DNA of 64,000 nt from Cupriavidus oxalaticus (lineage in GTDB: Bacteria; Pseudomonadota; Gammaproteobacteria; Burkholderiales; Burkholderiaceae), in assembly GCF_016894385.1 (NCBI RefSeq), contig NZ_CP069811.1:1278501-1342500 (forward strand), read 5' to 3'. The notes under the pieces were generated by a model that had not been told where the DNA came from, did no database searches, and saw only the letters and a program-made list of their open reading frames with translations. The position numbers were made by a program, and so were the translations under genes. This document shows, piece by piece, positions 12,698-64,000 of this stretch (positions are counted from its first letter, which is position 1; every line of letters starts with the position of its first letter).

Positions 12698-12705
12698 AGC
12701 GCAAT

Positions 12706-40105: not shown

Positions 40106-40175
40106 CGCAGCACACGGCCGGATGGCTACCAGCCCGCCGGCCCCCCAACCCTTTGTCCACACACAGGAAGCAAGC

Positions 40176-41342: not shown

Positions 41343-41378
41343 CGCCGACGCCGCGTCGGCCCGCATTCGGACATCGCC

Positions 41379-41777: not shown

Positions 41778-41826
41778 TCCCGAAGGCGGCGCCAGCCGCG
41801 CCGCCATCCCCTCCGACGGGTGATCC

Positions 41827-49739: not shown

Positions 49740-49823
49740 GCCTGTCTCCTCCTTGTAGTGAATGTAGTGAATTCTCTGCATTGGGGGGGCGTTCCGCTTG
49801 CCGGGGGTGCCGGAATGGCAAAA

Positions 49824-49854
49824 GACGGGCGGCCTGCCAGCAGACCTGCCCGTC
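49824..49854 (-). terminator. Weak hairpin after the MaoC gene
   Basis: Minus-strand stem GACGGGC / GCCCGTC (49824-49830 and 49848-49854), followed by TTTT (complement of 49820-49823). It lies 40 bp after the MaoC stop and may end the SDR/dehydrogenase/MaoC operon. The long loop makes it uncertain. Confidence 0.4.
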
Positions 49855-49894
49855 GTCACCTCGCGGCGCGCTACGCGTTAGGATGTTGCGTAAA

Positions 49895-50350
49895 TTACGG
49901 GAAGCGCCGCAGGATCGATTCCGCGATGCACACGGGCTTGCTGCCGCCCTGCCGCTCCACGGTCATCTCGACCTTGAACTGGGCGCCGCCGTTGTCCAGC
50001 GGCTCATACGACACCAGCCTGAACTGCGCACGCAGCAGGCTGTCGACCGGAACCGGAGCGGGAAACCGCACCTTGTCGAGGCCGTAGTTGACTCCCGTGC
50101 TGCTGTTCCGGATCCGGTATGCGGAGTGCGTGAAGGCCGGCAGCAGGCTCAGCGTCAGGAAACCGTGGGCGATCGGCGCGCCGAACGGGCCGTTCTTGGC
50201 GCGCTCGACGTCGACGTGAATCCACTGGTGGTCGCCCGTGGCGTCGGCGAACATATTGATGCGGGCCTGATCCAGCGCCAGCCATTCGCTCGTGCCGATG
50301 ACCTCTCCCACCAGCGGCTGGAGATCGGCGATGTTCTCGTAGGTCTTCAT
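49895..50350 (-). CDS. MaoC-family enoyl-CoA hydratase
   Basis: 151 residues of the hot-dog fold with the catalytic FADATGDHQWIHVD motif (Asp and His of the R-hydratase site, ~residues 30-45), PFGAPIAHGFLTLSL and the NYGLDKVRFPAPVPV strand. It hydrates a trans-2-enoyl-CoA to the R-3-hydroxyacyl-CoA. Its start overlaps the stop of the adjacent acyl-CoA dehydrogenase gene by four bases. In an operon with two acyl-CoA dehydrogenase genes and an SDR gene, it supplies the hydration step between them. Confidence 0.92.
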   Translation of the reverse strand: MKTYENIADLQPLVGEVIGTSEWLALDQARINMFADATGDHQWIHVDVERAKNGPFGAPIAHGFLTLSLLPAFTHSAYRIRNSSTGVNYGLDKVRFPAPVPVDSLLRAQFRLVSYEPLDNGGAQFKVEMTVERQGGSKPVCIAESILRRFP

Positions 50351-51495
50351 GCTTGCTCTTCCTTTTCAGTCAGGGATGCCTGCCATGCCTCGGCGTTGCG
50401 CGCGTCGTGCATGTCGGCATTGCCGAACAGCGCGTCCGCCACGACGGCGCGCTTGAAGTAGTGGCCGACGGGATACTCCTCGGTCATGCCGATGCCGCCG
50501 TGCAGCTGGATGGCCTGTCCGCACACATAGCGCGCGGCGCGCACCACCAGGCTCTTTGCCTGCGACACGGTGCGGTCCAGGTCGGGACTGTCGTTGTCGA
50601 TGGCCGCCAGCAGCACATAAAGCATCGAGCGCGCGACTTCCATCTCGGCGGCCATGTCGGACATCCGGTGCTGCAGCGACTGGAAGCTGCCGATCGCCAC
50701 GCCGAATTGCTTGCGCACCTTCAGGTAGTCCGCCGTGATCTCGATGGCCTTTTCCATGGCGCCCACCAGCTCGGCGCACAGCGCGGCGATGCCATGCGCC
50801 AGGCCCTGGCGCAGCGCGGCCTCGCCATTGCCGGCCTCGCCGAGCAGCGCGTCGGCCGGCACGAAGACGCCGTCGAAGGTCACTTCGGCGGCCCAGCTGC
50901 CGTCATGCAGGGGCAGCGAACGCCGCTTCACGCCTTCCTGTCCGGCCTCCACCACGAACAGGCTGGTGCCCGCACCGGCCACGTCGGCCGAGACCACGAA
51001 GGCGTCGGCGTCGCGGCCGCCTAGCACCAGCGTCTTGGTGCCGTGCAGCGTATAGCCGCCCGGCGCGGGCGTGGCGCGCGTCAGGACCGGGCCGATGAAG
51101 CCGCGCGACTGGCTTTCGCTGTAGGCCAGCGCCAGCCGGCGCGAGCCGTCCGCCACGGCGGGCAGCAGCGCTTCGCGTTGCTGCGCAGATCCGCCTGCCA
51201 GCACCGTCTGCGGCGCCAGCACGGCGCTGCCGAGCCACGGCTCGATCACCAGGCCGCGGCCGAACTCGGCGCTGATCAGCGCCATGTCGATGACATTGCC
51301 GCCCAGTCCGCCCGCCGCTTCCGGCAGCGCCGCGGCCAGCCAGCCGTTATCGGCGAAGGTCTGCCAATGGCCGGCATGGCACGGCTCGCCGCTGCGCAGG
51401 CGTGCCGTGCGCGCCGCGAGGTCGTATTCCTTGTCGACAAAGCGCCGCACGCTGTCGCGCAGCAGGCCTTGCTCATCATTCAGGTTGAATTTCAT
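50347..51495 (-). CDS. Acyl-CoA dehydrogenase, second (beta-type) subunit
   Basis: 382 residues with N-terminal MKFNLNDEQGLLRDSVRRFVDKEYD and C-terminal YVCGQAIQLHGGIGMTEEYPVGHYFKRAVVADALFG. It lacks the (E/G)GTSEVQR end motif of catalytic subunits, and its FAD/substrate middle region is degenerate (LALAYSESQSRGFIGPVLTRA). Two-subunit alpha2beta2 acyl-CoA dehydrogenases are known for steroid and other bulky CoA esters. This protein looks like the non-catalytic partner of the one encoded 15 bp upstream on the same strand. The pairing is inferred from sequence and position. Confidence 0.88.
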   Translation of the reverse strand: MKFNLNDEQGLLRDSVRRFVDKEYDLAARTARLRSGEPCHAGHWQTFADNGWLAAALPEAAGGLGGNVIDMALISAEFGRGLVIEPWLGSAVLAPQTVLAGGSAQQREALLPAVADGSRRLALAYSESQSRGFIGPVLTRATPAPGGYTLHGTKTLVLGGRDADAFVVSADVAGAGTSLFVVEAGQEGVKRRSLPLHDGSWAAEVTFDGVFVPADALLGEAGNGEAALRQGLAHGIAALCAELVGAMEKAIEITADYLKVRKQFGVAIGSFQSLQHRMSDMAAEMEVARSMLYVLLAAIDNDSPDLDRTVSQAKSLVVRAARYVCGQAIQLHGGIGMTEEYPVGHYFKRAVVADALFGNADMHDARNAEAWQASLTEKEEQA

Positions 51496-51510
51496 GCTCG
51501 GTGACTGCCT

Positions 51511-52734
51511 TCAGAAATTGAACAGCGACTTGGCGATGATGGTCCGCTGGACTTCGCTGGTGCCGCCATAGATGGTCGAGGCACGCCGGAAGAACATCTC
51601 GCTGGCGATGCCCCGGCCCAGGTCCTGCATGGGCAGCGCGGCTCTGGCGTCGCCATGGCCATCCTCGTCGTCCAGCGTCGGGTATGCCACGGCGCCGTAG
51701 TCGCCCAGCGCTTCCACCAGGAAGGTGCTCATGGCCTGCTGCAGCTCCGTGCCGCGGATCTTCAGCATGGAGCCCATCGCGTGGGCGGCCGGGCTGTGGT
51801 CTTCCTCCATCGACGCCACGCGCTGCACCAGCATGGCGATGGCATTCAGCTCCGCCTCGTAGCGCGCCAGCCGCAGCGCGAACTCGTGCCGCTGCGCCAG
51901 CGTGCGGCCGCTGACATCCTTGCGCGCGGCGAGACTGCGCACCTGCGCCAGATAGCGGCGCAGCATCGGCAGGTCGGCCGCCGTCGCGTGTTCGTTGTTG
52001 AGCAGGAACTTGGTGATGCTCCACCCTGCCCCTTCCTCGCCCACGCGGTTGGCCACGGGCACCCTGACGTCTTCGAAGAAGGTCTCGTTCAGGTGGTGGC
52101 AGCCGTCGATGCTGCGGATCGGCCGCACCGTGATGCCGGGCGACTTCATGTCCACCAGCAGGAAGGTGATGCCGGCCTGCTTCTTCGCCTCGGGATCGGT
52201 GCGCACCAGCAGGAAGATCCAGTCGGCGCGGTGAGCACAGGTGGTCCAGATCTTCTGGCCGTTGACCACGTAGTGGTCGCCTTCCCCCTCCACATCAAGA
52301 ACGGCGCGCGTGCGCAGCGAGGCGAGGTCGGAGCCGGAACCCGGCTCCGAGAAGCCCTGGCACCACTGGCGCTCGCCGCTCAGCATGTGCGGGATATGCT
52401 CGGCCCGCTGCGCCGGCGTGCCGAAGGCGTTCAGCACCGGTCCCAGCAGGCGCTGGGCTGCGGTATCCGACGACGGGGCGCCGGCGGCCACACATTCCTC
52501 GTCGAAGATCAGCCGCTGCAGCACCGACCAGCCGGTGCCGCCATGCTCTTTCGGCCAGGACGGCGCGCCCCAGCCACGCTGGTTCAGGATGCCCTGCCAG
52601 CGCGTCAGGTCCGCGCGCGCCGAGCGGGTGCCGCTGCGCGGCCTGCCGGCCAGGTCGGCGGGCAGGCTCTCGCGCAGGAAAGCGCGCACTTCCTGGCGGA
52701 ACGCCTCCAGGCCGAGATCGGGCTCGAAATCCAT
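51511..52734 (-). CDS. Acyl-CoA dehydrogenase, first (alpha-type) subunit
   Basis: 407 residues starting at MDFEPDLGLEAFRQEVRAFL. It has QGFSEPGSGSDLASLRTRAV (substrate/FAD motif), VNGQKIWTTCAHRADW and the end motif FFRRASTIYGGTSEVQRTIIAKSLF, with Gly where short-chain enzymes carry the catalytic Glu. This pattern marks the alpha subunit of heteromeric acyl-CoA dehydrogenases. AAAGGAGCAATGC precedes the ATG at 52734. It is co-transcribed with its beta partner, a MaoC hydratase and an upstream SDR gene. The bulky-ring substrate idea is inference. Confidence 0.9.
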   Translation of the reverse strand: MDFEPDLGLEAFRQEVRAFLRESLPADLAGRPRSGTRSARADLTRWQGILNQRGWGAPSWPKEHGGTGWSVLQRLIFDEECVAAGAPSSDTAAQRLLGPVLNAFGTPAQRAEHIPHMLSGERQWCQGFSEPGSGSDLASLRTRAVLDVEGEGDHYVVNGQKIWTTCAHRADWIFLLVRTDPEAKKQAGITFLLVDMKSPGITVRPIRSIDGCHHLNETFFEDVRVPVANRVGEEGAGWSITKFLLNNEHATAADLPMLRRYLAQVRSLAARKDVSGRTLAQRHEFALRLARYEAELNAIAMLVQRVASMEEDHSPAAHAMGSMLKIRGTELQQAMSTFLVEALGDYGAVAYPTLDDEDGHGDARAALPMQDLGRGIASEMFFRRASTIYGGTSEVQRTIIAKSLFNF

Positions 52735-52768
52735 TGCATTGCTCCTTTGAAGCCGTTGCCAGCCGTGG

Positions 52769-53680
52769 TCAGACCGGGTCCCAGGTGAAGATGTCGCGCG
52801 ACAGCTCGAACGGGACGAACTGGCTCTTGAGCATCGGAATGGCTCGATCCAGGCAGGACTGCACCGTCCAGCCATCGCTGTTGTGGGCGGCGCGGATCGG
52901 GCGCGGTTGCGAGAACAGGAAGATCTCGTTGTTGCGCACGCCGAAGACCTGGGCGTTGACGTGCTTTGCTTCGTCGGTCAGCAGGGCCAGCGTGAACGGC
53001 GCGATCTTGCCGGCCTCGAGGCGCATGTTGACCTTGCGGCGTTCCAGCGCTTCCGGCGTGTTGGCCGGCACGCTGTCCACCATGCGCGTGAAGGCGAACG
53101 GCGCGATGCAGTTGGAACGCACGTTGAACTTCTGCATGTCGATGGCGATGGACTTCGACAGCGCGACGATCCCCAGCTTGGCCGCCGCATAGTTGGCCTG
53201 GCCGAAGTTGCCGATCAGGCCGGTGGTCGAGGTCATGTGGACGAAGGCGCCGCTCTCCTGCGCCTTGAAATGCGGCGCCACCGCGCGGGAGACGTTCCAG
53301 CTGCCCTTCAGGTGTACCGCGATCACGGCGTCGAACTCTTCTTCGCTCATCTTGTGGAAGAGGACGTCGCGCAGGTTGCCGGCGTTGTTGACCACGCCAT
53401 CGATGCGGCCGTACAGGTCCATGGCCTGCTGGGCGATCTTCTGCGCGGCGTTCCAGTCGGCCACGCTGTCGGTGCTGACCGCGGCCTCGCCGCCGGCCGC
53501 GCGGATTTCCGCGACGACCTGTTCGCCGGGGCTGGCGCTGCCGCCCGAGCCGTCGATATTGACGCCGATGTCGTTGACGATCACGCGCGCACCCTGGCGG
53601 GCCGCCTCCAGCGCGATGCCCTTGCCCACGCCGGCGCCAGCGCCGGTCACGATGATGACTTTCCCTTCAAGCAGGCTCAT
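52769..53680 (-). CDS. SDR-family dehydrogenase (probable 3-hydroxyacyl-CoA dehydrogenase)
   Basis: 303 residues: VIIVTGAGAGVGKGIALEAARQGARVIVNDIG forms the NAD(P) site, VNNAGNLRD the structural motif, and MTSTTGLIGNFGQANYAAAKLGI contains the catalytic Ser, Tyr and Lys (YxxxK as YAAAK). The VIVNDIGVNIDGSGGS insertion and LSKSIAIDMQKF are typical of multifunctional-protein-like hydroxyacyl-CoA dehydrogenases. It would oxidise the product of the MaoC hydratase. It is the first gene of the minus-strand operon with both dehydrogenase subunits; the start at 53680 follows GGAG. The C-terminal 60 residues are unusually long for an SDR. Confidence 0.9.
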   Translation of the reverse strand: MSLLEGKVIIVTGAGAGVGKGIALEAARQGARVIVNDIGVNIDGSGGSASPGEQVVAEIRAAGGEAAVSTDSVADWNAAQKIAQQAMDLYGRIDGVVNNAGNLRDVLFHKMSEEEFDAVIAVHLKGSWNVSRAVAPHFKAQESGAFVHMTSTTGLIGNFGQANYAAAKLGIVALSKSIAIDMQKFNVRSNCIAPFAFTRMVDSVPANTPEALERRKVNMRLEAGKIAPFTLALLTDEAKHVNAQVFGVRNNEIFLFSQPRPIRAAHNSDGWTVQSCLDRAIPMLKSQFVPFELSRDIFTWDPV

Positions 53681-53895
53681 GTCTTGGACACTCCAGTAAA
53701 TCGGGTTGAACGAAAGGTGTGTGTCCATGATTGGCCGGCGGGTCCGCAGCGGGTACTCCCCGACTCGGGTGGCGTGGGGAGGAGCGGAGCTTATGGCTTG
53801 CGGATAAGCACCTGTATGGTCCGCGCGCCACCACCACCCGCCGCGTGAGGCGCGCTATCGGACCACTCCGGCAATCCGCAATTCGCCCAGAACAA

Positions 53896-53918
53896 CACGC
53901 CCGCATGGAGCGGGCGTG
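53896..53918 (-). terminator. Hairpin after the large fusion regulator gene
   Basis: CACGCCCGC (53896-53904) pairs with GCGGGCGTG (53910-53918) around ATGGA, 31 bp beyond the regulator stop. On the minus strand TTGTT follows. Probable weak terminator separating the regulator from the SDR promoter. The triplicated ACAGGG stretch near 53920-53936 is also low-complexity. Confidence 0.5.
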
Positions 53919-53948
53919 GACAGGGACAGGGACAGGAAAGCGGCAGGA

Positions 53949-56900
53949 TCAGGCAGGCACCACGCCCGGCCCCATCACGTCGCGCAGCAGCGCGGCGGCG
54001 CCGCCGCGGCCGCCGACGCCCAGCTTGGCGTAGATGTTCTTGAGATGCCATTTGACCGTCTCGGCGGAGACGTTCAGGACCCTCGCGATCTTCTTGTTGG
54101 ACATCGCCTGTGCCAGCAGGTACAGGATCTCCCGCTCCCGCTCGCTCAGCTGGGCGATGGGGCCGTTCTGCGGCCCGGCATCGGCGGCGCCGCGGTCGCT
54201 CGCCGCCGTGCGATGCGCGGCCAGCAGGCGCTGCACGTAGAAGCCGAGCACTGGGTCCGGCAGCGGCTCGCGGACAAGGGTGTCGGTAGCGTCCGACATG
54301 ACCTCCAGCGCGTCCAGCAGCGTGCGCGACAAACCCAGCCCGTGGCCCAGGCGGCAGGCTGCCACGAAGTCCTGCCGCGCCGCCGCACCCTCGCCCAGCC
54401 CCTGCCGCGCCACGGCAAGCTGCAGGCGCAGGCTGGCCGTGGCGGGTCCCTGCTCGCTGGCGTCGAGCAACGGCTGGATGCGCTCCAGCGCCCCGGCGAA
54501 ATCGCGGGTGTGCAAGGCCATGTCGATCGCCGCGCGCTCGGCCGCGTGGGCGAGCGCGCGGGCCCGCTCAGGGCCCGAACCCGAGCCCGAATCCGAGCCT
54601 GAATCCGAGCCTGAATCCGAGCCTGAACCCGAGCCCGAAGCGGTGTGGCGTTGCGCAAGCCCGCGCACGCATTCGAGGACGATGCTGGCCCGCTCCATCG
54701 CGCCCTGCTGGAGATGCCGGCGCAACCGTTGCACCAGCGCCTCGGCCAGCAGCCGGTCCAGGCCGTAGCGCACCGCATACGCCTCCAGCCGGTCGAGACA
54801 GGCCAGCGCCTGCTGGCGCCGCCCGGCGATCCAGTGCGAATTCGACAGCACCAGGCTGGCCCGCAGCACCACCTCCGGCAACGACGTGCGCTCCACCATG
54901 CCGATGCGCGGCTCCAGCAGCTGGCAGGCCGCCTCGGTTTCGTTCAGCTCGTACAGCGCATCGGCCAGCAGCCCGGCGGCCATGCTCGCCATCGCCACAT
55001 AGCCCGCGCCACACCCCTCGGCTTCGGCCAGCACCTCGCGCACGATCTTGCAGGCCTGGCGGATCTGCCCTTCGCGCACCAGGCTGAGCGCGTGGACGCA
55101 GCGGCCGAACTGGCGGCTGCGCGGAGAACGGCTGCGCAGGTCGGCCTCTTCCAGGATGCCACGCGCCAGGTCGTGCTCGCCGCGCTGGATCAGCAGCCAG
55201 GACAGCGCGTTGGCGCGGGCAAGCCAGGTGAAATCGCCGGCATCCGGCGGCGCGTTCCAGATTTCCGGCAGCAGCGCCGCCGCGGCGTCGATATCGTCGA
55301 GTTGCAGCGCCATGCCCGCGCGCAGCAGCGACACGGTATAGCACCCGGCCGCGCCGAGGCTGGCGCGCTGCGCGTCCATCTCGTCGAGGCTGCGGCGCAG
55401 GCCGTCGAAATCGCGCGCGTAGAGGAGCATGTAGGCGTGGGCCACATGCAGGCGGAAGCTGCCCCTGACCTGCTCTTCCGGCAGCATGCGCAGCAGGCCC
55501 GCCACCTGGCTCAGTTCGCCGCCGACCAGCAGCGCCTGCGCGCGCCCTTCGACCAGCGTCGCGGCGGCGTCCGGCTCGCCCGCGCTCACGGCGTGCAGCA
55601 CGGCCTCGTCGAGGTGGCCGCGGGCGTCGAACCAGCGCCAGGCTGTGGCGTGCAGCGCGCGGATCTCCGCTTCGTCGCGGGCCGCCAGGTAGCCGAGCAG
55701 CGTTTCGCGCAGCAGCGGATGAATGCGGTACCAGGTTTCGTTGTCGTGGCTGCCGACCACGGTGATGAACAGATGGTCGGCCACCATCCGCGCCACGCGC
55801 GCCTTGATGTCCGCCGCAGCCTGCGGCTGCCCGAGGATTTCCGCGCACAGGGGCACGCAGAAGCGCTGGCAGATGGCCACGCGGGTCAGCATGTCGAGAT
55901 CGTCGGGCGCGAGCCGGACCAGCACTTCGCGCTCGAAGAAGCTGGCGAACGCCCGGGCGTCGCGCACCTGCGTCACCGGGTAGCTGCCGGCCTGCCGGGT
56001 GCGCAGGCCGATGGCAAACAGTTGCAACCCCGCTGCCCAGCCGTCCGTCAGCGCATGCAGCGCCGCGGCGTCGCTGCCGGAGATGCTGCCGAGCTGGTCA
56101 CGCAGGTAGCGCGCGGATTCCTCGGGCGAGAAGCGCAGGTCGCGCATGTCGAATTCCGCAAGCTGGTTCTGCAGGCGCAGGCGCTCCATCGACAGGTCCA
56201 GCGCCGTGCGCGAGGCCAGCGCCACGTGCAGTTGCGGCGGGGCGTACTCCAGCAGCCACTGCAGCGCCAGCAGGATGGCTGGGTCGGAGACATGGTGCAG
56301 GTCATCGATCATCAGCACCAGTTCGCGCTGGCGCCGGGCCAGGCCCTGCACCAGCGTGATCGCCCACAGTTCGATCTCGGCCGCGTCGTGCCCGGCGGCC
56401 ACCTGCCCGGCGGCCACCACTTGCGAGGCTTCGCGCGCGGCGGCGGGATCGGCCTCGGCAATGCTGGCGAGCAGGTAGTCGAGGAAGCGCGCCGGCTCGT
56501 TGTCCTCGGCCGCCAGCGACAGCCAGCAGACGTCGTAGCCCAGCGAGATCATGGCCTTGCGCCACGCCATCAGCGTGCTGGTCTTGCCGCTTCCCGCCTG
56601 GCCCTGGATCATCACGCAGCGGTGTCGGCGGGCGTCGAGCAGGCGGCCCATCAGCGCTTCGCGCGGCATCAGTTGCCGGGCGCCGCGCGGCGGCAGCACC
56701 TTGGTGCTGGTGATCGGCAGGATGGGACGCTCGCCCTCGGCCACGGCATGGCCGGGCGGCAGCAGCTGGCTCGTGCCTTGCGGCTCCTGCGGAACGTCCG
56801 GCGCATCCGCCATATCCAGCGCATGGCCGCCCGCCAGACCGTGCGGCACGGTCTGGCGGATCCAGCGATACGGCGTGGCGCTGCGCGACCGCGCAGCTGC

Positions 56901-57842
56901 CTCGATGGCTGCCAGGGCCTCCGGGATGGCGGCCGGGAAGCTCGACCGGCGCACCGTCTGCGCATCGCACAGGAACCGCTGCACCATGCGCAGCCAGGCG
57001 GCGCCGTTGGGCGCCAGTTGCACCATCACGCGCGGATGGCGCCGGACCCAGTGCTGGACGTCCGCATGCTGGTGGCTGGCGTAGTTGTCCGACAGGACCC
57101 AGATGTGCCGGTCCGCGGGCGTGGCCGCCTCCACGTCGCGCAGGAAGCCCAGCCAGCTTTCGTGCTGGCCGCCGCCGGCGCCGGTATCGCCAATCCCGCC
57201 GTCTAGCATCCGCAGCGCCGTCAGCAGCGACGCGGCAAGGCTGCGCTGGTGCGCCGGCAGCGAGCGCAGGTTCTGCCCCCCCGCCGCCGACGTGCCACCA
57301 TCGGCCAGCGGATGCGCATGCTCGTCGAACGCCAGCACCAGCGCATGTTCGGGCCCGGCGGCGTAGAGGGCGACGATTTCGACAGCCCGCCCGCTGAAGC
57401 GGAACGGCGTCGGGCCGGTTGCACGGCCTGTGAAGCCGGAAGCAAGTCCCGCCGCGCGCCAGTGGCGCGAGACGCTTGCGGCGCTGACGCCCAGTTCCGC
57501 CGCCACGCCGCGCATGCTCCAGCCGCGCGGCGCGTCGGGGCCGTCCGCGCCGGTCAGCCTCGCCAGCCTCGTCATGTCCACCCTGACGGGCGGCGCGCCG
57601 CGCGGGAGGTCATGCAGGATGCCGCCAAGCCCGGCGTGGGCATAGCGCTCGCGCCAGCGCGCGACCTGCGCGCGCCCGATGCCGAGGCGGGGCGCGATCA
57701 TCTTGTTTTGCTCGCCTTGCGCCGCCAGCAGGATGATGCGGGCGCGCTGCGCCACCTTGGCCGGGGTCTCCGGCGCGGTGGCAAGTGTTTCGAGCTGGGA
57801 GCGATCCTGGTCGGTCAGGATGATCTGGGGTGCTACACGCAT
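53949..57842 (-). CDS. Transposase-derived STAND regulator: IS630-type DDE domain fused to MalT-like ATPase and LuxR HTH
   Basis: 1297 residues in one continuous frame. Residues ~10-135 hold two HTH units of IS630 transposases (KMIAPRLGIGRAQVARWRERY, and AAELGVSAASVSRHWRAAG). Residues ~165-310 follow the IS630 DDE core: LAFDEHAHPL (Asp173), VLSDNYASHQ (Asp252) and AAWLRMVQRFLC, where the catalytic Glu is Gln288. From ~385 there is a STAND ATPase (Walker A GQAGSGKTS at 414-422; Walker B LVLMIDDLHH at 508-517), then helical repeats and a Gly/Ser/Asp linker. A LuxR-type HTH (LSEREREILYLLAQAMSNKKIARVLNVSAETVKWHL, 1232-1267) ends the protein. MalT relatives are ~900 residues. The start at 57842 follows AGAGGCGC. 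It probably governs adjacent acyl-CoA genes. Confidence 0.88.
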   Translation of the reverse strand: MRVAPQIILTDQDRSQLETLATAPETPAKVAQRARIILLAAQGEQNKMIAPRLGIGRAQVARWRERYAHAGLGGILHDLPRGAPPVRVDMTRLARLTGADGPDAPRGWSMRGVAAELGVSAASVSRHWRAAGLASGFTGRATGPTPFRFSGRAVEIVALYAAGPEHALVLAFDEHAHPLADGGTSAAGGQNLRSLPAHQRSLAASLLTALRMLDGGIGDTGAGGGQHESWLGFLRDVEAATPADRHIWVLSDNYASHQHADVQHWVRRHPRVMVQLAPNGAAWLRMVQRFLCDAQTVRRSSFPAAIPEALAAIEAAARSRSATPYRWIRQTVPHGLAGGHALDMADAPDVPQEPQGTSQLLPPGHAVAEGERPILPITSTKVLPPRGARQLMPREALMGRLLDARRHRCVMIQGQAGSGKTSTLMAWRKAMISLGYDVCWLSLAAEDNEPARFLDYLLASIAEADPAAAREASQVVAAGQVAAGHDAAEIELWAITLVQGLARRQRELVLMIDDLHHVSDPAILLALQWLLEYAPPQLHVALASRTALDLSMERLRLQNQLAEFDMRDLRFSPEESARYLRDQLGSISGSDAAALHALTDGWAAGLQLFAIGLRTRQAGSYPVTQVRDARAFASFFEREVLVRLAPDDLDMLTRVAICQRFCVPLCAEILGQPQAAADIKARVARMVADHLFITVVGSHDNETWYRIHPLLRETLLGYLAARDEAEIRALHATAWRWFDARGHLDEAVLHAVSAGEPDAAATLVEGRAQALLVGGELSQVAGLLRMLPEEQVRGSFRLHVAHAYMLLYARDFDGLRRSLDEMDAQRASLGAAGCYTVSLLRAGMALQLDDIDAAAALLPEIWNAPPDAGDFTWLARANALSWLLIQRGEHDLARGILEEADLRSRSPRSRQFGRCVHALSLVREGQIRQACKIVREVLAEAEGCGAGYVAMASMAAGLLADALYELNETEAACQLLEPRIGMVERTSLPEVVLRASLVLSNSHWIAGRRQQALACLDRLEAYAVRYGLDRLLAEALVQRLRRHLQQGAMERASIVLECVRGLAQRHTASGSGSGSDSGSDSGSDSGSGSGPERARALAHAAERAAIDMALHTRDFAGALERIQPLLDASEQGPATASLRLQLAVARQGLGEGAAARQDFVAACRLGHGLGLSRTLLDALEVMSDATDTLVREPLPDPVLGFYVQRLLAAHRTAASDRGAADAGPQNGPIAQLSEREREILYLLAQAMSNKKIARVLNVSAETVKWHLKNIYAKLGVGGRGGAAALLRDVMGPGVVPA
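54577..54636 (-). repeat. Five 12-bp tandem repeats encoding a Ser/Gly/Asp linker
   Basis: Five contiguous copies of a 12-bp unit (GAACCCGAGCCC, three GAATCCGAGCCT, GAACCCGAGCCC) inside the regulator gene. They encode SGSG/SDSG repeats between the helical-repeat part and the rest of the protein. Each unit is a multiple of three, so changes in copy number keep the frame. Confidence 0.85.
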
Positions 57843-57924
57843 ATGCGCCTCTGCCGATGGGGCAGCCCTGCGCCGCGCCATGCCGGGGCGGCCGGGGACT
57901 GCCTGGGTGTCGGGGAAGCCGGGC

Positions 57925-58971
57925 TCAGTCGATGCTGGCGCCGGAGCGCTGGATGATGGCCTTCCACTTGCCGCGTTCGGATGCCACGAAGCTGTGGAAC
58001 CGTTCGCCGCCAAGCGGCAGCGGCGCGGCGCCCATCCGCTGGATCTCGGCGATCACCGCCGGATCGGCCAGCAGACGGCCGATATCGGCCTGCCACCTGG
58101 CCACGACGGCCGCACTGGTGCGGGCGGGGAAGAACAGGCCGATCCACGACGTGGCTTCGGCGCCGGGATAGCCGGCCTCGGCCACGGTCGGCACCTGCGC
58201 CAGCGCGGGCAGGCGGGCCTTGCCCGTGACCGCGAGCGCGCGCAGCTTGCCGGCCTGGATCTGCGGCAGCGTGGAAACGGGGTAGTCGAAGGTCATGTCG
58301 ACCTGTCCCGCCAGCAGGTCATTGATGACGGGCGCGCTGCCCTTGTAGGGGATGTGAACGAACTTCACTCCTGCCTGGGCCTGGAACAGTTCGGCGGCGA
58401 GGTGCGTCCCCGTGCCGTTGCCCACCGACGCCACGGTCAGCTTGCCGGGATTGGCCCTGGCGTACGTGACCAGGTCCCTGACCGAGCGGAACGGCAACTG
58501 GCTGTTCACCACCAGGATATTGGGAATGGTGACCAGGCCTTGCGCCGCGACGAAGTCCTTCTCCGGATCGAAGCGCAGCGACTTGTACAGGAACTGGTTG
58601 CCGGCAACCATGCCCTGCGTGCCCATCAGGACCGTGTAGCCGTCAGGCTGCGCACGCGCGCCGATTTCCGCGGCAATGTTGCCGCCGGCGCCGCCCCGGT
58701 TGTCGATCACCACCTGGATGCCGAAGTCCCTGGCCATATGCGAGGCGACCAGCCGGGCCAGCTGGTCGGTGATGCCGCCTGGCGGCGCGGGCACCACCAT
58801 CGTGACCGGCCTGGCGGGATACCCGTCCTGGGCACGCGCGGGCGTTGCGCCCGTCGCGGCGGCAAGGCCGCACGCGACGGCGGCTGCCGCCGCCAGGGTT
58901 GTCCTGAAGCGCCCCGGAAGGCGGGCGAGGCGGGAGAACCGGGGATGCCGGTTCCGGATTTGTGACTGCAT
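57925..58971 (-). CDS. Bug/TctC-family solute-binding protein
   Basis: 348 residues. A basic N-terminal region (RNRHPRFSRLARLPGRFRTT) precedes a hydrophobic signal ending in TPARAQ. The mature protein has YPARPVTMVVPAPPGGITDQLARL, DNRGGAGGNIAAEIGARAQPDG and HIPYKGSAPVINDLLAGQVDMTFDY. The ATG at 58971 follows AGGAGA. A TTG six bases earlier is less likely. It lies between the big regulator and the second dehydrogenase pair, and its 237-bp upstream region holds repeated elements. The PGGITDQ ligand loop differs from the other Bug proteins here. Confidence 0.92.
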   Translation of the reverse strand: MQSQIRNRHPRFSRLARLPGRFRTTLAAAAAVACGLAAATGATPARAQDGYPARPVTMVVPAPPGGITDQLARLVASHMARDFGIQVVIDNRGGAGGNIAAEIGARAQPDGYTVLMGTQGMVAGNQFLYKSLRFDPEKDFVAAQGLVTIPNILVVNSQLPFRSVRDLVTYARANPGKLTVASVGNGTGTHLAAELFQAQAGVKFVHIPYKGSAPVINDLLAGQVDMTFDYPVSTLPQIQAGKLRALAVTGKARLPALAQVPTVAEAGYPGAEATSWIGLFFPARTSAAVVARWQADIGRLLADPAVIAEIQRMGAAPLPLGGERFHSFVASERGKWKAIIQRSGASID

Positions 58972-59045
58972 GTCCAACCATCTCCTGTGTATCGCACCGG
59001 TCTCTTGCCGGATCCTCGGTGCCTTGTATCGCCATGATTTCTACG

Positions 59046-59099
59046 AGATATCGTGGCAATCAACCAGATATCGATGATTGATACTACGTCTTTTCGTAG
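59046..59099 (-). promoter_or_regulatory. Repeats upstream of the 58-kb Bug gene
   Basis: AGATATCG occurs at 59046-59053 and 59066-59073, 20 bp apart, and a CTACG-TCTTTT-CGTAG dyad lies at 59084-59099. The region is A+T-rich for this genome and lies 75-130 bp before the Bug start. It is a plausible regulator binding region. The protein is unknown; the neighbouring transposase-derived regulator is one candidate. Confidence 0.4.
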
Positions 59100-59208
59100 A
59101 ACTCCGCCATATACCGTAGGAAAACCCCTACTCCGGTCCGAATGCTGTTCAGTCAACCACCGTCGGAATGACAGTAGGGTCCGGAAGGGAACGACCCGCC
59201 ACCCGGTA

Positions 59209-60345
59209 TCAAGGCAGCGTTTCGGCCAGCCGCCGGACATGCGCCTCGCCATCGCCAAACAGCTGCTCCATGACGTGGATGCGCCGCAGGCAATGCGCGA
59301 CCGCGTATTCCTCGGTCATGCCGATACCGCCATGCGCCTGGATCGCGGCATGACAGACCGAGCGCGCGTGAGTGCCGATGATCACCTTGGCGCGCGACAG
59401 CTCGGTGGCGGCGTCTTCGTGCCCCGGCTCGTCGCTCGCCAGCGCGGCGGCGACCGCCATGCTGCGCGCCAGTTCGACGCTCACGCACATGTCGGCAATC
59501 CGGTGCCGCATCGCCTGGTAATCACCGATGGGGCGGCCGAACTGGCGGCGCGTGCGCACGTAGTCGGTCGTCAGCGCCAGCGCCGCCTCCATCGCGCCGA
59601 CCACATCGGCGCAGGCGGCCGCAATGCCGGCCGCCGCGACGGCGCGGATCGCGGAAGCTGCGCAGGCGGTGCCGGCGGGATCGCCCAGCGGCTCCGCCCG
59701 TGCGTGGTGCAGCGACACGTCCGCCGCCGCCGTGTCGTCGAGCAGGCGATACGCACGCATTGCCACGCCATCATCCTTCGGATCGACGATGAACAACGCC
59801 AGCCCGTCCTCGTCCTCCGCCTCGCCGCGCACGCGCGCCGTGACCACGAGGCGTGACGCCTCGGCGCCGTGCAGCACGCCAGCCTTTCCGCCATCGAGCC
59901 GCCAGCCGTCAGGCCCGGCATGCGCGGTCGTTTCGACCCACAGCGGGGCATGCCGGCCAGCCGACTCGTCGTGCGCCCAGGCAAGCCGCAGCGTGCCGTC
60001 GGCCAGGCCCGGCAGCAGCGCCGCCTTCTGCGCCGCGGTGCCGGCCTCGCGCACGGCGGTGGTGGCAAGCACGGCCGAGGCCAGGTAGGGCTCGATCACC
60101 AGCGCCCGCCCCAGCGCCTGCATGACCGGCAGCCGGTCTTCCGCGCCGCCGCCGAGGCCACCGAACGTTTCGGGAATGCCGAGCGCGGTGACGCCCAGGC
60201 TGGCCAGGCGCGTCCAGGTTTCCGGGTCGGTGCCGGTCCCGGTGCGGCCCAGCGCCCGGCGCCGCTCGAATCCATAGTGGTCTGCCAGCAGGCGCGACAG
60301 GCTGTCGGCAAGCTGGCGCTGCTCATCGTTCAGATCGAAGTTCAT
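59209..60345 (-). CDS. Acyl-CoA dehydrogenase, second (beta-type) subunit
   Basis: 378 residues beginning MNFDLNDEQRQLADSLSRLLADHYGF and ending with QAHGGIGMTEEYAVAHCLRRIHVMEQLFGDGEAHVRRL. No GTSEVQ end motif and a divergent centre (LRLAWAHDESAGRHAPLWVETTAHAG) suggest a non-catalytic beta subunit, as for the 50-kb protein. The start is 3 bp after the stop of the partner gene. It is the last gene of the CoA-ligase operon. Function as half of a heteromer is inferred from this pattern and position. Confidence 0.88.
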   Translation of the reverse strand: MNFDLNDEQRQLADSLSRLLADHYGFERRRALGRTGTGTDPETWTRLASLGVTALGIPETFGGLGGGAEDRLPVMQALGRALVIEPYLASAVLATTAVREAGTAAQKAALLPGLADGTLRLAWAHDESAGRHAPLWVETTAHAGPDGWRLDGGKAGVLHGAEASRLVVTARVRGEAEDEDGLALFIVDPKDDGVAMRAYRLLDDTAAADVSLHHARAEPLGDPAGTACAASAIRAVAAAGIAAACADVVGAMEAALALTTDYVRTRRQFGRPIGDYQAMRHRIADMCVSVELARSMAVAAALASDEPGHEDAATELSRAKVIIGTHARSVCHAAIQAHGGIGMTEEYAVAHCLRRIHVMEQLFGDGEAHVRRLAETLP

Positions 60346-60348
60346 GGT

Positions 60349-61518
60349 TCAACCCAGGGTTGCCTTGGCGAGAATGTCCTTCTGGACTTCGCTGGAGCCG
60401 CCGAAGATGGTCGCGGCGCGGTAGAAGAAGTAGCCCCAGAGCGCTGCACCCATCGTGTCCGGGACGGCGGTGTCGAGATCGTGCCGCTCCAGCCCGGCGG
60501 GGCCGGCGATGCGCGCGATCAGGGTGGTCAGCGCCTGCATCGTCTCCGATCCCTTCAGCTTGAGGACGGAGGCGAAGCCGGGGTTCGTGCGCGCGATGTC
60601 GGGATCGAGCAGGAAGCGCCAGTTGGTCAGCTCCAGCGCCCGGATTTCCGCGCCCAGCCGGGCCAGTTCGGCGCGCAGCGACGGATCGTCGATCAGGTAG
60701 CGCTTGCCCTGGCGCACGGTTGTCGCGAGTTCGCGCGCGCAGGACAGGCGCTCCCAGCAGAGGCCGACATTGGCCACGCTGCTGCGCTCGCTGTTCAGCA
60801 GGTATCTGGCGCAGTCCCAGCCACGCCCCTCCTCGCCCACCAGGTTTTCCGCGGGCACGCGGGTGCCGTCGAAGAACACCTCGTTGACCGTGCGGTAGCC
60901 GTCCATGGTCCGGATCGGCCGCACCGACACGCCCGGGCTGCGCAGGTCGATCAGCAGGAACGAGATGCCGTCCTGCTTGCGCTCGCCCTGCCCGGTGCGC
61001 ACCAGCGCGAACATCCAGTTGGCGTCGTGGGCATGCGAGGTCCAGATCTTCTGGCCGTCCACGACGTAGTGGCCGCCCTCGCGGACCGCTCGCGTCTTCA
61101 GCGAGGTCAGGTCGGAGCCGGCATTGGGTTCCGAGAAGCCCTGGCAGAAGATCGTCTCCATGCTGAGTAGCTTCGGCAGGAAATACGACTTCTGCGCGGC
61201 GGTGCCGTAGCGCAGCAGCACCGTACCGAGCATGCCGATGTTCGTGATCAGCGGCTGCGGCGCGCACGCGCGGTACAGTTCGTCGGTGAGGATCACGCGC
61301 TCGGCAATGCCGAGGCCGGCGCCGCCGTACTCGGGCGGCCAGTGCGGCGCGACCCAGCCGCGCTCGTTGAGCACCTGGTGCCACGCGGCCATGTCTTCCA
61401 TGCGGGCGCGCATGCCGCGACGCAGCCGCTCGCGCATGGTTGCCGGAAGACGCGCCGCAATGAAGGCGCGGACTTCGTCACGAAAGGCGAGCTGGGATGG
61501 GGTGAGGCGAAGGTCCAT
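60349..61518 (-). CDS. Acyl-CoA dehydrogenase, first (alpha-type) subunit
   Basis: 389 residues: MDLRLTPSQLAFRDEVRAFIAARLP, the substrate/FAD signature CQGFSEPNAGSDLTSLKTRAV, VVDGQKIWTSHAHDANW and the end motif FFYRAATIFGGSSEVQKDILAKATLG. It resembles the 51.5-kb alpha subunit in length, motif layout and the Gly at the usual catalytic Glu. It is flanked 6 bp from a CoA ligase gene and 3 bp from its beta partner, making a tight operon. The two pairs may serve different rings or chain lengths. Confidence 0.9.
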   Translation of the reverse strand: MDLRLTPSQLAFRDEVRAFIAARLPATMRERLRRGMRARMEDMAAWHQVLNERGWVAPHWPPEYGGAGLGIAERVILTDELYRACAPQPLITNIGMLGTVLLRYGTAAQKSYFLPKLLSMETIFCQGFSEPNAGSDLTSLKTRAVREGGHYVVDGQKIWTSHAHDANWMFALVRTGQGERKQDGISFLLIDLRSPGVSVRPIRTMDGYRTVNEVFFDGTRVPAENLVGEEGRGWDCARYLLNSERSSVANVGLCWERLSCARELATTVRQGKRYLIDDPSLRAELARLGAEIRALELTNWRFLLDPDIARTNPGFASVLKLKGSETMQALTTLIARIAGPAGLERHDLDTAVPDTMGAALWGYFFYRAATIFGGSSEVQKDILAKATLG

Positions 61519-61524
61519 GGTCCC

Positions 61525-63705
61525 TCAGTCGTGGTGGTTGTGGTGGGATGGCTGGGCAAGGCGGGTGCGTCCGGTCTGCACCACGGCATCGAGCGCCACC
61601 ACGCCCTGCCCTTCGGGCAGGACGCAAAGCGGATTGACTTCGAGGGCCAGCAGCCGGTCGGCATTGCGGGCGGCAAGACGGGAGATGCCGGCGATCGCGC
61701 GCGCCAGGGCCGGCACGTCGGCCGGCGGCCGGCCACGGAAGCCGGTCAGCAGGCGGTGTCCCTTGACGCGCCGGATCAGGTCCAGCGCGCCGGCCTCGTC
61801 GAGCGGCGCCAGCGCGAACGCCACGTCCTGCACGACCTCCACCAGCACGCCGCCAAGTCCGAACATCATCACCGGGCCGAACAGCGGGTCGGCATGCACG
61901 CCGACGATGCACTCCACGCCGTCCTGCAACATCGGGGAAACCAGGAAGCCGTCGATGTGCGCGCCGGGCACGCGGAGCGGGATCGCGCGCGCCATGCGCC
62001 GCACCGTTTCCGCAACCGCCTCCGGCGACGCGAGCGACAGCGCCACGCCGCCGACGTCGGACTTGTGCCGGATATCCGCCGACACGACCTTGACGGCCAC
62101 CGGCCGGCCGATCCGGCGCGCCGCGTCGGCGGCTTCTTCCGGCGTGCGGACGAGCCGCTCGTCGGGCAATGGCACGCCGGCGCACGCCAGCAGCCGTTTG
62201 GCGTCGGCCTCGTTGTACGCGGTGCCCGCTTCCAGCAGCGGCATCTGCGCCACGTCGGGACGCTGCGGCAACGGCCGCGAGAACACCCCCTCGAAGAATT
62301 CCAGCGCGGCAAGCGCGCGGATGGCGCGGTAAGGTTCTTCGAACAGCAGGCAGCCTGCCACCTCGTAGGGCCGGACCAGTTCCGGCCCGCCGATGAGGCT
62401 GATCGTCTGCAGCACGTCCGGCCGGCGCGCGGCAATGCGTTCCACCGTCTCGCGGATGGGCCCGCCGGCACGCGCATTCCCGACCGCCGGGCCGAGCCAC
62501 ATCAGGATCGAGTCATAGCCGGCATCGAGCAGGGCATCCAGCGTGGCGGCGAAGATGCCGGGCTCATTGGAAATCTGCGCGGTCATGTCGACGGGATTGG
62601 CCGGCGAACCGAACGGCACGATCTCGCGCAGCGCCTGCTGCGTCGCGGCCGGCGGCGCGGGCAGCGCGAGGCCCGCGGCGCAGGCGAAGTCGGCAATCTG
62701 CACGCCCGCGCCGCCGGAGATGGTCGCCACGCCCAGCCGGCGCTTGCGCAGCGGCTTGCCGGCGCTGAGCGCGTAGACCACATCCAGCACCTCTTCGCTC
62801 GACTGCGCGCGGTAGGCACCGTACTCGCGCAGCACGGCATCGTAGATGTCGTCCGCGCCCGCCAGCGCGGCGGTGTGCGACGCCGCCGCCGCCGCGCCGG
62901 CCTCGGTGGCGCCCACCTTCATCAGCACCACCGGCTTGCGGCGCCGGTGCGCCGCCGCCAGCCCCCGCAGGAACGATGCCTTCGAGCGGATGCCTTCTAT
63001 GTAGCCGACGATGATGTCGACCTCCGCGCTTTCCGCCATCCACGCCATGACCTCGCCGAACTCGATGTCGGCCTCGTTGCCGGTCGTCACCACCTGATCG
63101 ACCGCGAGCCCGCGCTGCATCGCCAGCATGTGGATATGCGCGCCGTAGCCGCCGCTCTGGCTGACCAGGCCGATGCGCGGCTTGCCTGGCGGCAGCACGC
63201 ATTCCAGGTTGCCGAGAAACGTCACGAAGGTCTTGCGGCTAAGGCAGTAGCAGCCGATCACGTTGGGGCCGAGCAGGCGGATGCCGTGCTCCCTCGCGGT
63301 CCGGGTGACGGCCTCCTGGAGTTCGCGCCCCGCCTCGCCCAGTTCGGCGAAGCCGCTCGTGAACAGGACCACGGCGCGGATGCCCTTGTCCGCGCACTGC
63401 CTGAGCGTGTCGATGACCAGCCCGGTGGGCAGCGCGATGATGGCGCAGTCGATGCCGTCCGGCGCCTCGCGCAGGCTCGGGAATGCCGGCAGTCCCTGCA
63501 CGGTGCTGCGCGACGGGTTGATCGGGTAGATCGCGCCCTCGTACCCGTAGCGCAGCGCATAGGCGATCGGGCGGCCGCTGATGCGCGTGGGGTCGTCCGA
63601 CGCGCCGATCACGGCGATGGAGCGGGGGCGGAAGACGGCATCCAGCGAGCGGATGCCTGCGGGAATGGCGGAAATGGCGGGAACTGCGGGAATATCTGGA
63701 CGCAA
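61525..63705 (-). CDS. Acetate-CoA-ligase-type (NDP-forming) acyl-CoA synthetase, single chain
   Basis: 726 residues with CoA-binding (SIAVIGASDDPTRISGRPIAYALRYGYEG), ligase domains with the phosphohistidine loop SHTAALAGADD, and an ATP-grasp part (LLACAGVPLPDERLV ... VVSADIRHKSDVGGVALSL, GVECIVGVHADPLFGPVMMFGLGG). It is organised like the 41.8-kb enzyme. It would make the CoA ester dehydrogenated by the enzymes of the following two genes. It begins 60 bp after a partial Bug gene, so the operon order is Bug, ligase, alpha dehydrogenase, beta dehydrogenase. Confidence 0.92.
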   Translation of the reverse strand: MRPDIPAVPAISAIPAGIRSLDAVFRPRSIAVIGASDDPTRISGRPIAYALRYGYEGAIYPINPSRSTVQGLPAFPSLREAPDGIDCAIIALPTGLVIDTLRQCADKGIRAVVLFTSGFAELGEAGRELQEAVTRTAREHGIRLLGPNVIGCYCLSRKTFVTFLGNLECVLPPGKPRIGLVSQSGGYGAHIHMLAMQRGLAVDQVVTTGNEADIEFGEVMAWMAESAEVDIIVGYIEGIRSKASFLRGLAAAHRRRKPVVLMKVGATEAGAAAAASHTAALAGADDIYDAVLREYGAYRAQSSEEVLDVVYALSAGKPLRKRRLGVATISGGAGVQIADFACAAGLALPAPPAATQQALREIVPFGSPANPVDMTAQISNEPGIFAATLDALLDAGYDSILMWLGPAVGNARAGGPIRETVERIAARRPDVLQTISLIGGPELVRPYEVAGCLLFEEPYRAIRALAALEFFEGVFSRPLPQRPDVAQMPLLEAGTAYNEADAKRLLACAGVPLPDERLVRTPEEAADAARRIGRPVAVKVVSADIRHKSDVGGVALSLASPEAVAETVRRMARAIPLRVPGAHIDGFLVSPMLQDGVECIVGVHADPLFGPVMMFGLGGVLVEVVQDVAFALAPLDEAGALDLIRRVKGHRLLTGFRGRPPADVPALARAIAGISRLAARNADRLLALEVNPLCVLPEGQGVVALDAVVQTGRTRLAQPSHHNHHD

Positions 63706-63764
63706 CGGACGCTCCTTCGATACACCACTGCATGGAAAGGCCGGCGGCCTGCGCCGGCCGGCGG

Positions 63765-64000
63765 TTATTCCGCGGCTGCGCCGGAGGCCTGGATCAGGCG
63801 CTCCATCACCGGCATCAGCGTTTCGAAGTTGTGGCGGAATTCGGCCGAACTGTTGCCCACCGGCGCCAGCCCGTAAGCCTGGAACCGCGCGCGCAGCGGC
63901 GTGGAACGGATGATCTCGCGCGAGGTCTTTTCGACGAACGCCAGCACGTCGGGCGGCGTGGCGGCCGGCGCCATCATCACGATCCAGGACTGCGGGCGGA
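63765..64000 (-). CDS. Bug/TctC-family solute-binding protein, 5' end outside the window
   Basis: The last ~78 residues of a Bug-type protein. SWIVMMAPAATPPDVLAFVEKTSREIIRST is the conserved hinge helix, and PLRARFQAYGLAPVGNSSAEFRHNFETLMPVMERLIQASGA is the end typical of the family. The N-terminal signal and the ligand loop lie beyond base 64000. It precedes the CoA ligase gene by 60 bp and is likely in the same operon, supplying its substrate acid. Confidence 0.85.
   Translation of the reverse strand, partial: RPQSWIVMMAPAATPPDVLAFVEKTSREIIRSTPLRARFQAYGLAPVGNSSAEFRHNFETLMPVMERLIQASGAAAE

What the first reader, a model, noticed from the sequence alone, without database searches (positions are those of the whole stretch)
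53949..57842. Domesticated IS630 transposase fused to a STAND/LuxR regulator, with a DDQ instead of DDE triad
One unbroken 1297-codon frame joins a transposase-like HTH plus DDE core to a MalT-like AAA/STAND ATPase, helical repeats and a LuxR HTH. The first two acidic residues are kept (Asp173, Asp252), but the position corresponding to the last Glu (IS630 pattern WLNxVERW) reads WLRMVQRF with Gln288 (codon 56979-56981). This predicts loss of cleavage with retained DNA binding, that is, exaptation of a transposase as a second DNA-binding arm of a signal-transducing ATPase. It sits between two acyl-CoA operons with paired dehydrogenases. I do not know of a described system of this kind.
Basis: partly seen in the sequence, partly recalled or inferred. 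Interest (0 to 1): 0.87.

Follow-up and report, generated by a model that had tools for sequence, protein, structure and literature searches.

The report
Regulator with a captured dead transposase
A bacterial gene switch of the MalT type carries at its front end a jumping-gene enzyme that seems to have lost its cutting site but kept its DNA-gripping part, a fusion shared by related bacteria and, as far as I could search, not yet described.

Summary
Window 53949-57842(-) is one open 1297-codon frame joining a complete IS630-type transposase (two HTHs plus DDE core) to a MalT-like STAND ATPase with a LuxR (GerE) HTH. It is no lone accident: 44 relatives with a full transposase part were listed, mainly Cupriavidus, also Paraburkholderia and Caballeronia. 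Their transposase halves form one side of a 100/100 branch against 17 stand-alone transposases, and both halves share one history. The third catalytic residue is Gln/His/Arg in 44 of 44 full-length fusions examined (never Glu); the first Asp is kept in 8 of 44. The first HTH stays as close to real transposases (74%) as to other fusions (73%), while the core has decayed (34-39%). Ten proteins lack most or all of the core yet keep the first HTH. This is transposase capture: a dead transposase kept as an extra DNA-binding arm of a catabolic regulator, a bacterial counterpart of human SETMAR. In a sister subclade an upstream element resembles the inner half of the donor transposon's ends (post hoc, but a held-out locus scored best); no convincing site was found at the window. 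DNA binding, targets and loss of cleavage remain untested. No paper listed in my searches describes it.

The parts
53949..57842 (-). fusion gene, 1297 codons: IS630-type transposase (dead) + MalT-like STAND ATPase + helical repeats + LuxR HTH
57588..57761 (-). first HTH (residues 28-85), paired-like; 74% mean identity to 43 stand-alone IS630 transposases; kept in all 10 core-lacking relatives
57438..57581 (-). second HTH (residues 88-135); kept in 5 of 10 core-lacking relatives
56913..57395 (-). degenerate DDE (RNase H-like) core, residues 150-310
   Evidence: fold only weakly supported
57324..57326 (-). codon of Asp173 (first catalytic position; Asp in 8 of 44 full-length fusions)
57087..57089 (-). 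codon of Asp252 (second catalytic position; Asp in 40 of 44)
56979..56981 (-). codon of Gln288 at the place of the third catalytic Glu (Q 39, H 4, R 1 of 44; E 0)
56694..56912 (-). linker, residues 311-383, fast-evolving
55683..56693 (-). MalT-like STAND ATPase, residues 384-720
56580..56603 (-). Walker A GQAGSGKT (residues 414-421), mostly invariant in the 21 aligned fusions
54183..55682 (-). helical repeat region, residues 721-1220
   Evidence: boundaries approximate
53994..54152 (-). C-terminal LuxR-type HTH (GerE), residues 1231-1283
57925..58977 (-). TctC (Bug) solute-receptor gene directly upstream; a relative of it lies directly upstream of the fusion gene in L042 and L052
59209..61518 (-). 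pair of acyl-CoA dehydrogenase genes (59209-60345, 60349-61518)
61525..63705 (-). CoA-ligase gene (CoA_binding, Succ_CoA_lig, ATP-grasp_5)
49895..53728 (-). MaoC dehydratase, two acyl-CoA dehydrogenases and a short-chain dehydrogenase downstream

Best explanation
A regulator made by transposase capture. Once, probably in an ancestor within the Burkholderiaceae, an IS630 transposase gene became joined in frame to the 5' side of a MalT-like LAL regulator of a CoA-thioester catabolic cluster (fusion and common descent shown by sequence and trees; place and order inferred). The catalytic Glu is absent from every full-length fusion examined, so it was lost at or soon after the fusion, and the active site decayed, while the paired-type DNA-binding domain, above all its first HTH, stayed under selection (shown by alignment, dN/dS and natural core loss). 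Inferred mechanism: the STAND ATPase binds ATP and an inducer, probably a pathway metabolite, and oligomerises; its C-terminal GerE HTH and the N-terminal transposase HTH bind two DNA sites, so that one protein anchors or loops the control region of the acyl-CoA genes and probably of its own gene. The remnant core is kept in most members as a non-catalytic scaffold, perhaps for dimerisation, and is dispensable in others.
For: Frame and domains. Full-length relatives; hits starting at residue 1 in 8 of 100 genomes, the window's own included, and in two further genus codes of the family (L154, L155). Third catalytic residue Q/H/R in 44 of 44 fusions, Glu in 43 of 43 stand-alone transposases. Mean identity fusion-transposase against fusion-fusion: HTH1 .742/.728, HTH2 .587/.579, core .338/.385; among stand-alone transposases the core (.911) exceeds HTH1 (.836). 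Ten proteins lack most or all of the core but keep the first HTH; that label needs 6 changes on the MalT-half tree, 5 forced by starred branches; one is in an isolate on a 1.1-Mb contig (L052). Transposase halves are one side of a 100/100 branch; distances of N and C halves correlate at 0.909 over 43 proteins, 0 of 2000 permutations as high. dN/dS, closest pair L047/L054: HTH1 .039, core .217, STAND .043, GerE .034. Acyl-CoA dehydrogenase genes near 13 of 14 fused loci against 2 of 20 control stretches. Sister-subclade upstream element: inner-end PWM, sum over 6 loci reached by 2 of 4000 column permutations, held-out L189 by 0 of 4000.
Against: No binding, expression or phenotype data. No convincing end-like site was found at the window or near other clades. 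The end-like match was seen by eye before it was tested, covers only the inner half, lies in the opposite orientation to the left end of the element, fails without a gap in L031 (1.2), and in L046 another stretch of the locus scores higher (16.7 against 11.9). The core is not neutral (dN/dS .19-.35 in the four pairs with dS below 0.7), so a further function of the core is possible; in one of these pairs (L042/L123) HTH2 (.426) is less constrained than the core (.350). One protein inside the fused clade (P0042) has lost the whole transposase part, and one fused copy (L110) has a broken frame. Unfused LAL relatives sit in similar acyl-CoA clusters (ACAD at 58 of 62 loci), so the fusion is not needed for that role. 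In worms a captured Tc1/mariner HTH under purifying selection is reported not to act in transcription but possibly in protein contacts (passages of PMC12062965).
Confidence: 0.74

Rival explanations
1. The transposase half is kept for protein-protein contact (dimerisation or partner binding), not DNA binding, as reported for the Tc1/mariner HTH in worm F-box proteins.
For: The remnant core stays under purifying selection; the worm precedent (passages of PMC12062965).
Against: The first HTH, including recognition-helix residues (R62 W63 R64 R66 invariant in the 21 aligned fusions; 84-87% identical to transposases over residues 56-68), is what remains where the core is gone. The end-like upstream element in the sister subclade would be unexplained.
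Confidence: 0.14
2. Residual nuclease: the DDQ site keeps some metal-dependent strand cleavage that matters, as claimed for Metnase with DDN.
For: Metnase passages report cleavage with DDN; Asp252 is kept in 40 of 44 and Gln at the third place in 39 of 44.
Against: First catalytic Asp lost in 36 of 44; the DEKSQVQALDR block of the transposases is not kept in the aligned fusions; ten relatives lack most or all of the core.
Confidence: 0.05
3. A recent chance insertion of an IS630 copy or an assembly artefact that merely happens to read through.
For: IS630 copies are common in the genus.
Against: Fusions are conserved across genera, mostly at 44-64% identity to the window's protein, with both halves sharing one history; no second IS630 match over the cut-off in the window's genome; no flanking ends seen; overall dN/dS below 1 in all pairs printed.
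Confidence: 0.01
4. Slow decay: the N-terminal half is a tolerated passenger that is being lost piece by piece, with HTH1 surviving only because deletions start downstream of the translation start.
For: The core evolves fast and is lost repeatedly; one relative (P0042) has lost everything; one fused copy (L110) has a broken frame.
Against: HTH1 dN/dS is close to that of GerE and STAND in the closest pair (.039.034.043), and its identity to transposases has drifted little (.742, against .836 among the transposases themselves).
Confidence: 0.06

Closest known systems
Human SETMAR/Metnase (SET methylase fused to Hsmar1 mariner transposase)
   Different: Bacterial; host half is a STAND/LuxR regulator; transposase at the N-terminus; a multi-paralogue family with natural core loss; binding to transposon ends not shown.
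MalT and other LAL (large ATP-binding LuxR) regulators
   Same: STAND ATPase, helical repeats, C-terminal GerE HTH; solved MalT fragment 8bob matches residues 388-791 (E 1.5e-27).
   Different: Known MalT has no N-terminal DNA-binding domain (recalled); here about 370 extra residues of transposase origin.
IS630-family transposases (closest: P0122-P0241, most 361 aa)
   Same: 43-46% identity over residues 1-328; same bipartite HTH.
   Different: No catalytic Glu, no terminal inverted repeats found, fused C-terminal regulator.
Caenorhabditis F-box A2 proteins with a captured Tc1/mariner HTH
   Same: A transposase HTH captured once, followed by family expansion and later domain losses, under purifying selection (passages of PMC12062965).
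   Different: Eukaryotic; HTH reported not to act in transcriptional regulation.
TldR (TnpB-derived, nuclease-dead transcription factors)
   Same: Bacterial RNA-guided regulator of transposon-nuclease origin (search listing and abstract start of PMC13418256; the origin and dead nuclease are recalled).
   Different: RNA-guided, stand-alone, not a DDE transposase and not fused to a sensor ATPase (recalled).

Membership tests
IS630 transposase | profile score over NCBIfam NF033545 cut-off | tested here: met
   105.1 against cut-off 100, but only profile positions 1-265 of 299; the genuine transposases P0123 and P0205 score 272 and 276
IS630 transposase | intact DDE triad | tested here: not met
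   Gln288 in place of Glu; Glu in 0 of 44 fusions, in 43 of 43 stand-alone transposases
IS630 transposase | terminal inverted repeats at TA flanking the gene | tested here: not met
   no flanking end-like pair among the 25 longest of 126 inverted repeats; PWM of six IS630 ends scores at best -8.1 (maximum 59.8) over window 49000-64000
IS630 transposase | multi-copy mobility in the genome | tested here: not met
   one match over the cut-off in the window's genome, the fusion itself; four weak ones at 39.1 bits
LAL / MalT-type regulator | STAND ATPase with Walker A and B | tested here: met
   GQAGSGKT at 414-421; D513 D514 L515 invariant in the 21 aligned fusions
LAL / MalT-type regulator | C-terminal GerE HTH | tested here: met
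   GerE E 3.5e-21, residues 1231-1283
LAL / MalT-type regulator | MalT equivalog itself | tested here: not met
   234.4 bits against cut-off 537
LAL / MalT-type regulator | ATP- and inducer-dependent activation | not testable with these tools
   needs biochemistry
host-transposase fusion regulator (SETMAR-like, as a working class) | host and transposase domains in one conserved frame from one capture | tested here: met
   the root and the outlying HTH-only group are unresolved
host-transposase fusion regulator (SETMAR-like, as a working class) | DNA-binding domain conserved while catalytic residues are lost | tested here: met
host-transposase fusion regulator (SETMAR-like, as a working class) | binds transposon-end-like sites | tested here: inconclusive
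   end-like element upstream in the sister subclade only, post hoc; none convincing at the window
RNase H-like DDE fold of residues 150-310 | fold match to solved DDE transposases | tested here: inconclusive

The most novel reading that the evidence does not exclude
Bacteria, like animals, make transcription factors by transposase capture: a dead IS630 transposase and a sequence resembling the transposon's own end were adopted together as DNA-binding arm and operator of an ATP-gated regulator, giving a two-armed protein that reads a transposon-derived site with one end and a LuxR-type site with the other, followed by stepwise trimming of the catalytic core.
Probability: 0.35. Interest if true: 0.87.

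Novelty: new variant of a known kind. Interest (0 to 1): 0.76.

Why it matters
Fusion of host domains to transposase DNA-binding domains is a recognised source of new regulators in animals (passages of PMC12062965). None of the papers listed in my nine searches describes, by title and abstract start, a bacterial case with a DDE transposase, and in a review of mobile-element recruitment in prokaryotes the words 'IS630' and 'DDE' do not occur (word-start search). If right, this family shows the same route in bacteria with many stages preserved: donor-type transposases, full fusions, core-lacking forms, one full loss, and unfused relatives. It offers a tractable system for asking how a regulator acquires a second DNA-binding domain and how operators arise. 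In practice, public records name some of these regulators 'IS630 family transposase', which hides them.

Tried and rejected
AlphaFold of residues 1-350 showed a helix (197-216) in the part of the core where a strand pair would be expected (recalled from RNase H folds); a genuine transposase folded with the same 46 companion rows gave a similar helix (200-224) at lower confidence, so I draw nothing from it. Foldseek and VIA-align comparisons were weak; VIA-align was run on the window model only.

Intact IS630 ends near the fusion genes: none (inverted repeats of the window's gene, the 25 longest of 126 shown). End-like sites at the window (57843-58250, 58978-59208, 53729-53948): none convincing. 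Two low uncorrected values occurred there among 18 regions x 4 sub-windows: an outer-half hit (15.1, 0 of 100 shuffles as high) inside the TctC coding sequence, and a middle-part hit at 53729-53948 (8.3, 0.02). Neither was supported by gapped alignment; I do not count them.

A regulon of the sister-subclade element: the pattern, with up to 3 mismatches, occurs once in each of 4 of 60 genomes, at the fusion gene each time, and misses the copy in L031, so it is no genome-wide operator at that stringency.

Defence systems: for the two fusion proteins scanned, PADLOC hits fall only on the GerE HTH, so that idea was dropped.

Acyl-CoA neighbourhood as a special mark of the fusion: rejected, because 58 of 62 unfused loci share it; only ChsH2-like OB-fold genes (9 of 14 fused, 1 of 62 unfused), CoA-ligase genes (9 of 14, 2 of 62) and MaoC genes (4 of 14, 1 of 62) are clearly more frequent with fusions, and these loci are not independent.

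Rows dropped: one search counts 44 full-length fusions out of 54 proteins of at least 980 aa, the window's included (10 core-lacking ones apart; P0002, cut at its C end, is outside). One search used 43 of the 120 listed stand-alone transposases. One search left out L056 (partial) and three loci under 9 kb; its 14 fused loci include a core-lacking one (L052), one with a broken frame (L110) and near-copies (L047/L054, L050/L051). One search recovered 11 of 16 coding sequences tried (L048, L050, L051, L010, L031 missed by my start filter). One search used 9 of 11 transposase loci tried (L131, L145 missed) plus 8 proteins. Searches listed only the best 120 of 315 and of 1749 proteins.
Full report
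WHAT IS THERE. Window 53949-57842 on the minus strand is one open frame of 1297 codons. The ATG at 57842 is the likely start: most aligned relatives and stand-alone transposases begin with the same MR[VI]A, although a mechanical ORF reaches back to a TTG at 58013. Residues 32-287 match the NCBIfam IS630 transposase model at 105.1 bits (cut-off 100) and 380-857 match MalT at 234 bits; Pfam finds HTH_23/HTH_29 at 28-85, AAA_16 at 397-536 and GerE at 1231-1283. The solved MalT fragment 8bob aligns with residues 388-791. The Walker A motif is intact.

THE FUSION IS A FAMILY. A database search listed 120 of 315 homologues. By architecture the 121 proteins including the window's are 45 with a full transposase part (two of them, P0002 and P0023, short at the C end), 10 with the N-terminal HTH but without most or all of the core, and 66 without either. 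In 100 related genomes, the window's own included, 20 have a match at E 1e-100 or better, all in the window's genus; by my count of its rows, 8 of the 100 have a hit starting at residue 1. Among 299 genomes of the family, full-length hits also occur in two other genus codes (L154, L155). Named carriers include Cupriavidus lacunae, C. necator, C. pinatubonensis, C. yeoncheonensis, C. numazuensis, Paraburkholderia sacchari and Caballeronia concitans, and large plasmids of two Cupriavidus strains. One carrier copy (L110, Cupriavidus sp. UYMMa02A) has a broken frame.

ONE CAPTURE, THEN CO-INHERITANCE. A careful tree of 45 fused transposase halves and 17 stand-alone transposases puts the fused ones on one side of a 100/100 branch. 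A quick tree of the MalT half puts all 45 full fusions, 6 HTH-only forms and one unfused protein (P0042) on one side, with support 92, not starred. Pairwise distances of the two halves correlate at 0.909 over 43 proteins, 0 of 2000 permutations as high; within the MalT part itself the correlation of two segments is 0.801. The trees are not rooted. Whether the outlying HTH-only group (P0050, P0055, P0066, P0076) comes from the same capture is open.

CATALYTIC RESIDUES ARE LOST ACROSS THE FAMILY. At the place of the third catalytic Glu, 44 of 44 full-length fusions have Gln (39), His (4) or Arg (1); the first Asp is kept in 8 of 44, the second in 40 of 44; 43 of 43 stand-alone transposases examined (of 120 listed) have D, D and E. 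The window protein, with D173, D252 and Q288, is one of 7 of 44 with DDQ and so among the least decayed. Loss of cleavage is an inference: Metnase, with DDN, is reported to keep some nuclease activity (passages of PMC4036204).

SURROUNDINGS. Next to the gene lie a TctC receptor gene, two pairs of acyl-CoA dehydrogenases, MaoC, a short-chain dehydrogenase and a CoA ligase; a thiolase-like gene and a ChsH2-like OB-fold gene lie at 40.1-41.8 kb. Acyl-CoA dehydrogenase genes accompany 13 of 14 fused loci and 58 of 62 unfused loci of at least 9 kb, against 2 of 20 control stretches of 20 kb of the window's genome. So this LAL subfamily as a whole sits in CoA-thioester catabolic clusters, and the fusion was added to an existing regulator type. 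ChsH2-type OB-fold genes occur at 9 of 14 fused and 1 of 62 unfused loci (Fisher p 1.3e-7, loci not independent). Paired dehydrogenases with ChsH2 and thiolase recall steroid-type side-chain breakdown (recalled), so the inducer may be such a CoA ester: inference.

A POSSIBLE OPERATOR. No full IS630 end lies near the fused genes scanned. In a sister subclade, however, an element roughly 50-115 bases upstream of the start is conserved (L045, L046, L049, L053, L031). Its pattern (up to 3 mismatches) occurs once in each of 4 of 60 genomes of the genus, each time at the fusion gene; the copy in L031 is too diverged to be found that way. I noticed by eye that one half resembles the inner part of the ends of the closest stand-alone IS630 elements, then tested it: with an inner-20 matrix from six ends, scores are 10.5, 11.9, 12.1, 11.6 and 1.2, the last one matching only with a one-base gap. 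Of 1320 windows of 300 bases from the window's genome 0.3% reach 11.6, but in L046 another stretch of the same locus scores 16.7. A locus fetched afterwards, L189 from Cupriavidus sp. KK10, scores 18.6 at the same place. Summed over six loci, 2 of 4000 column-permuted matrices reach the observed value; for L189 alone 0 of 4000. Ends of five other IS630 groups give nothing comparable (at least 32 of 300 permutations as high in each). Individual gapped alignments are weaker (5-43 of 300 shuffles as high), four sub-windows were tried in each of two groups of loci, and the site is inverted relative to the element's left end. I regard it as a good lead that the captured domain kept its taste for transposon-end DNA in that subclade. 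The window's own subclade shows no convincing site.

MECHANISM. Shown: one conserved two-part protein, no catalytic Glu in any full-length fusion examined, constrained HTH1, intact ATPase motif and GerE HTH, catabolic setting. Inferred: ATP and inducer binding, oligomerisation, dual DNA contact, control of the flanking operons and of the gene itself. The strongest rival is a protein-contact role of the HTH, for which a worm precedent exists (passages of PMC12062965).

LITERATURE. Nine searches listed no description of a bacterial transposase-LuxR/STAND fusion; the lists were capped and only openly licensed papers are held. I saw passages of PMC9062482, PMC4036204, PMC8987985 and PMC12062965, and for all other papers search listings with abstract starts only. 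Public names for members include 'IS630 family transposase', 'LuxR C-terminal-related transcriptional regulator' and 'serine/threonine protein kinase'.

VERDICT. A real, old and selected domain fusion; new for bacteria as far as I could search; known in kind from animals. Interest 0.76.

Noticed in passing
L042 and L049 (Cupriavidus lacunae, one 22-kb contig); L053 and L054 (C. numazuensis, one contig): Two diverged fusion regulators lie towards the two ends of one 22-kb contig with catabolic genes between them in C. lacunae, and two lie about 40 kb apart in C. numazuensis.
   Followed up: partly
window 54573-54639: A 12-base tandem repeat (5.6 copies, 92% match) encodes a Ser/Gly/Asp stretch between the helical region and the LuxR HTH of the fusion protein.
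   Followed up: no
L045, L046, L049, L053, L031, L189, roughly 50-115 bases upstream of the fusion gene: Conserved non-coding element, partly like the inner half of IS630 ends; in L045, L046 and L049 it lies in a divergent intergenic region facing an enoyl-CoA hydratase-like gene (named by eye) and an acyl-CoA dehydrogenase-like gene.
   Followed up: yes
L110 (Cupriavidus sp. UYMMa02A), 10001-13789: A fusion gene copy whose frame is split into several open frames: pseudogene or assembly error.
   Followed up: no
public protein records P0025, P0034, P0037, P0038: Fusion regulators are named 'IS630 family transposase' in public records; others are called serine/threonine kinase.
   Followed up: no
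   Followed up: no
window 40122-43932: Thiolase-like, ChsH2-like OB-fold and CoA-ligase-like genes in a row; an OB-fold gene of this kind is near 9 of 14 fused loci but only 1 of 62 unfused ones (the ligase placed by similarity).
   Followed up: partly
G000:C2:1198019-1200958 (L002): Second MalT-like paralogue in the window's genome (42% identity), without a recognisable transposase part.
   Followed up: partly
L038-L041 (window's genome): Four equal-scoring 381-codon frames with a weak IS630-like HTH match (39.1 bits each), probably a multi-copy insertion sequence of another family.
   Followed up: no
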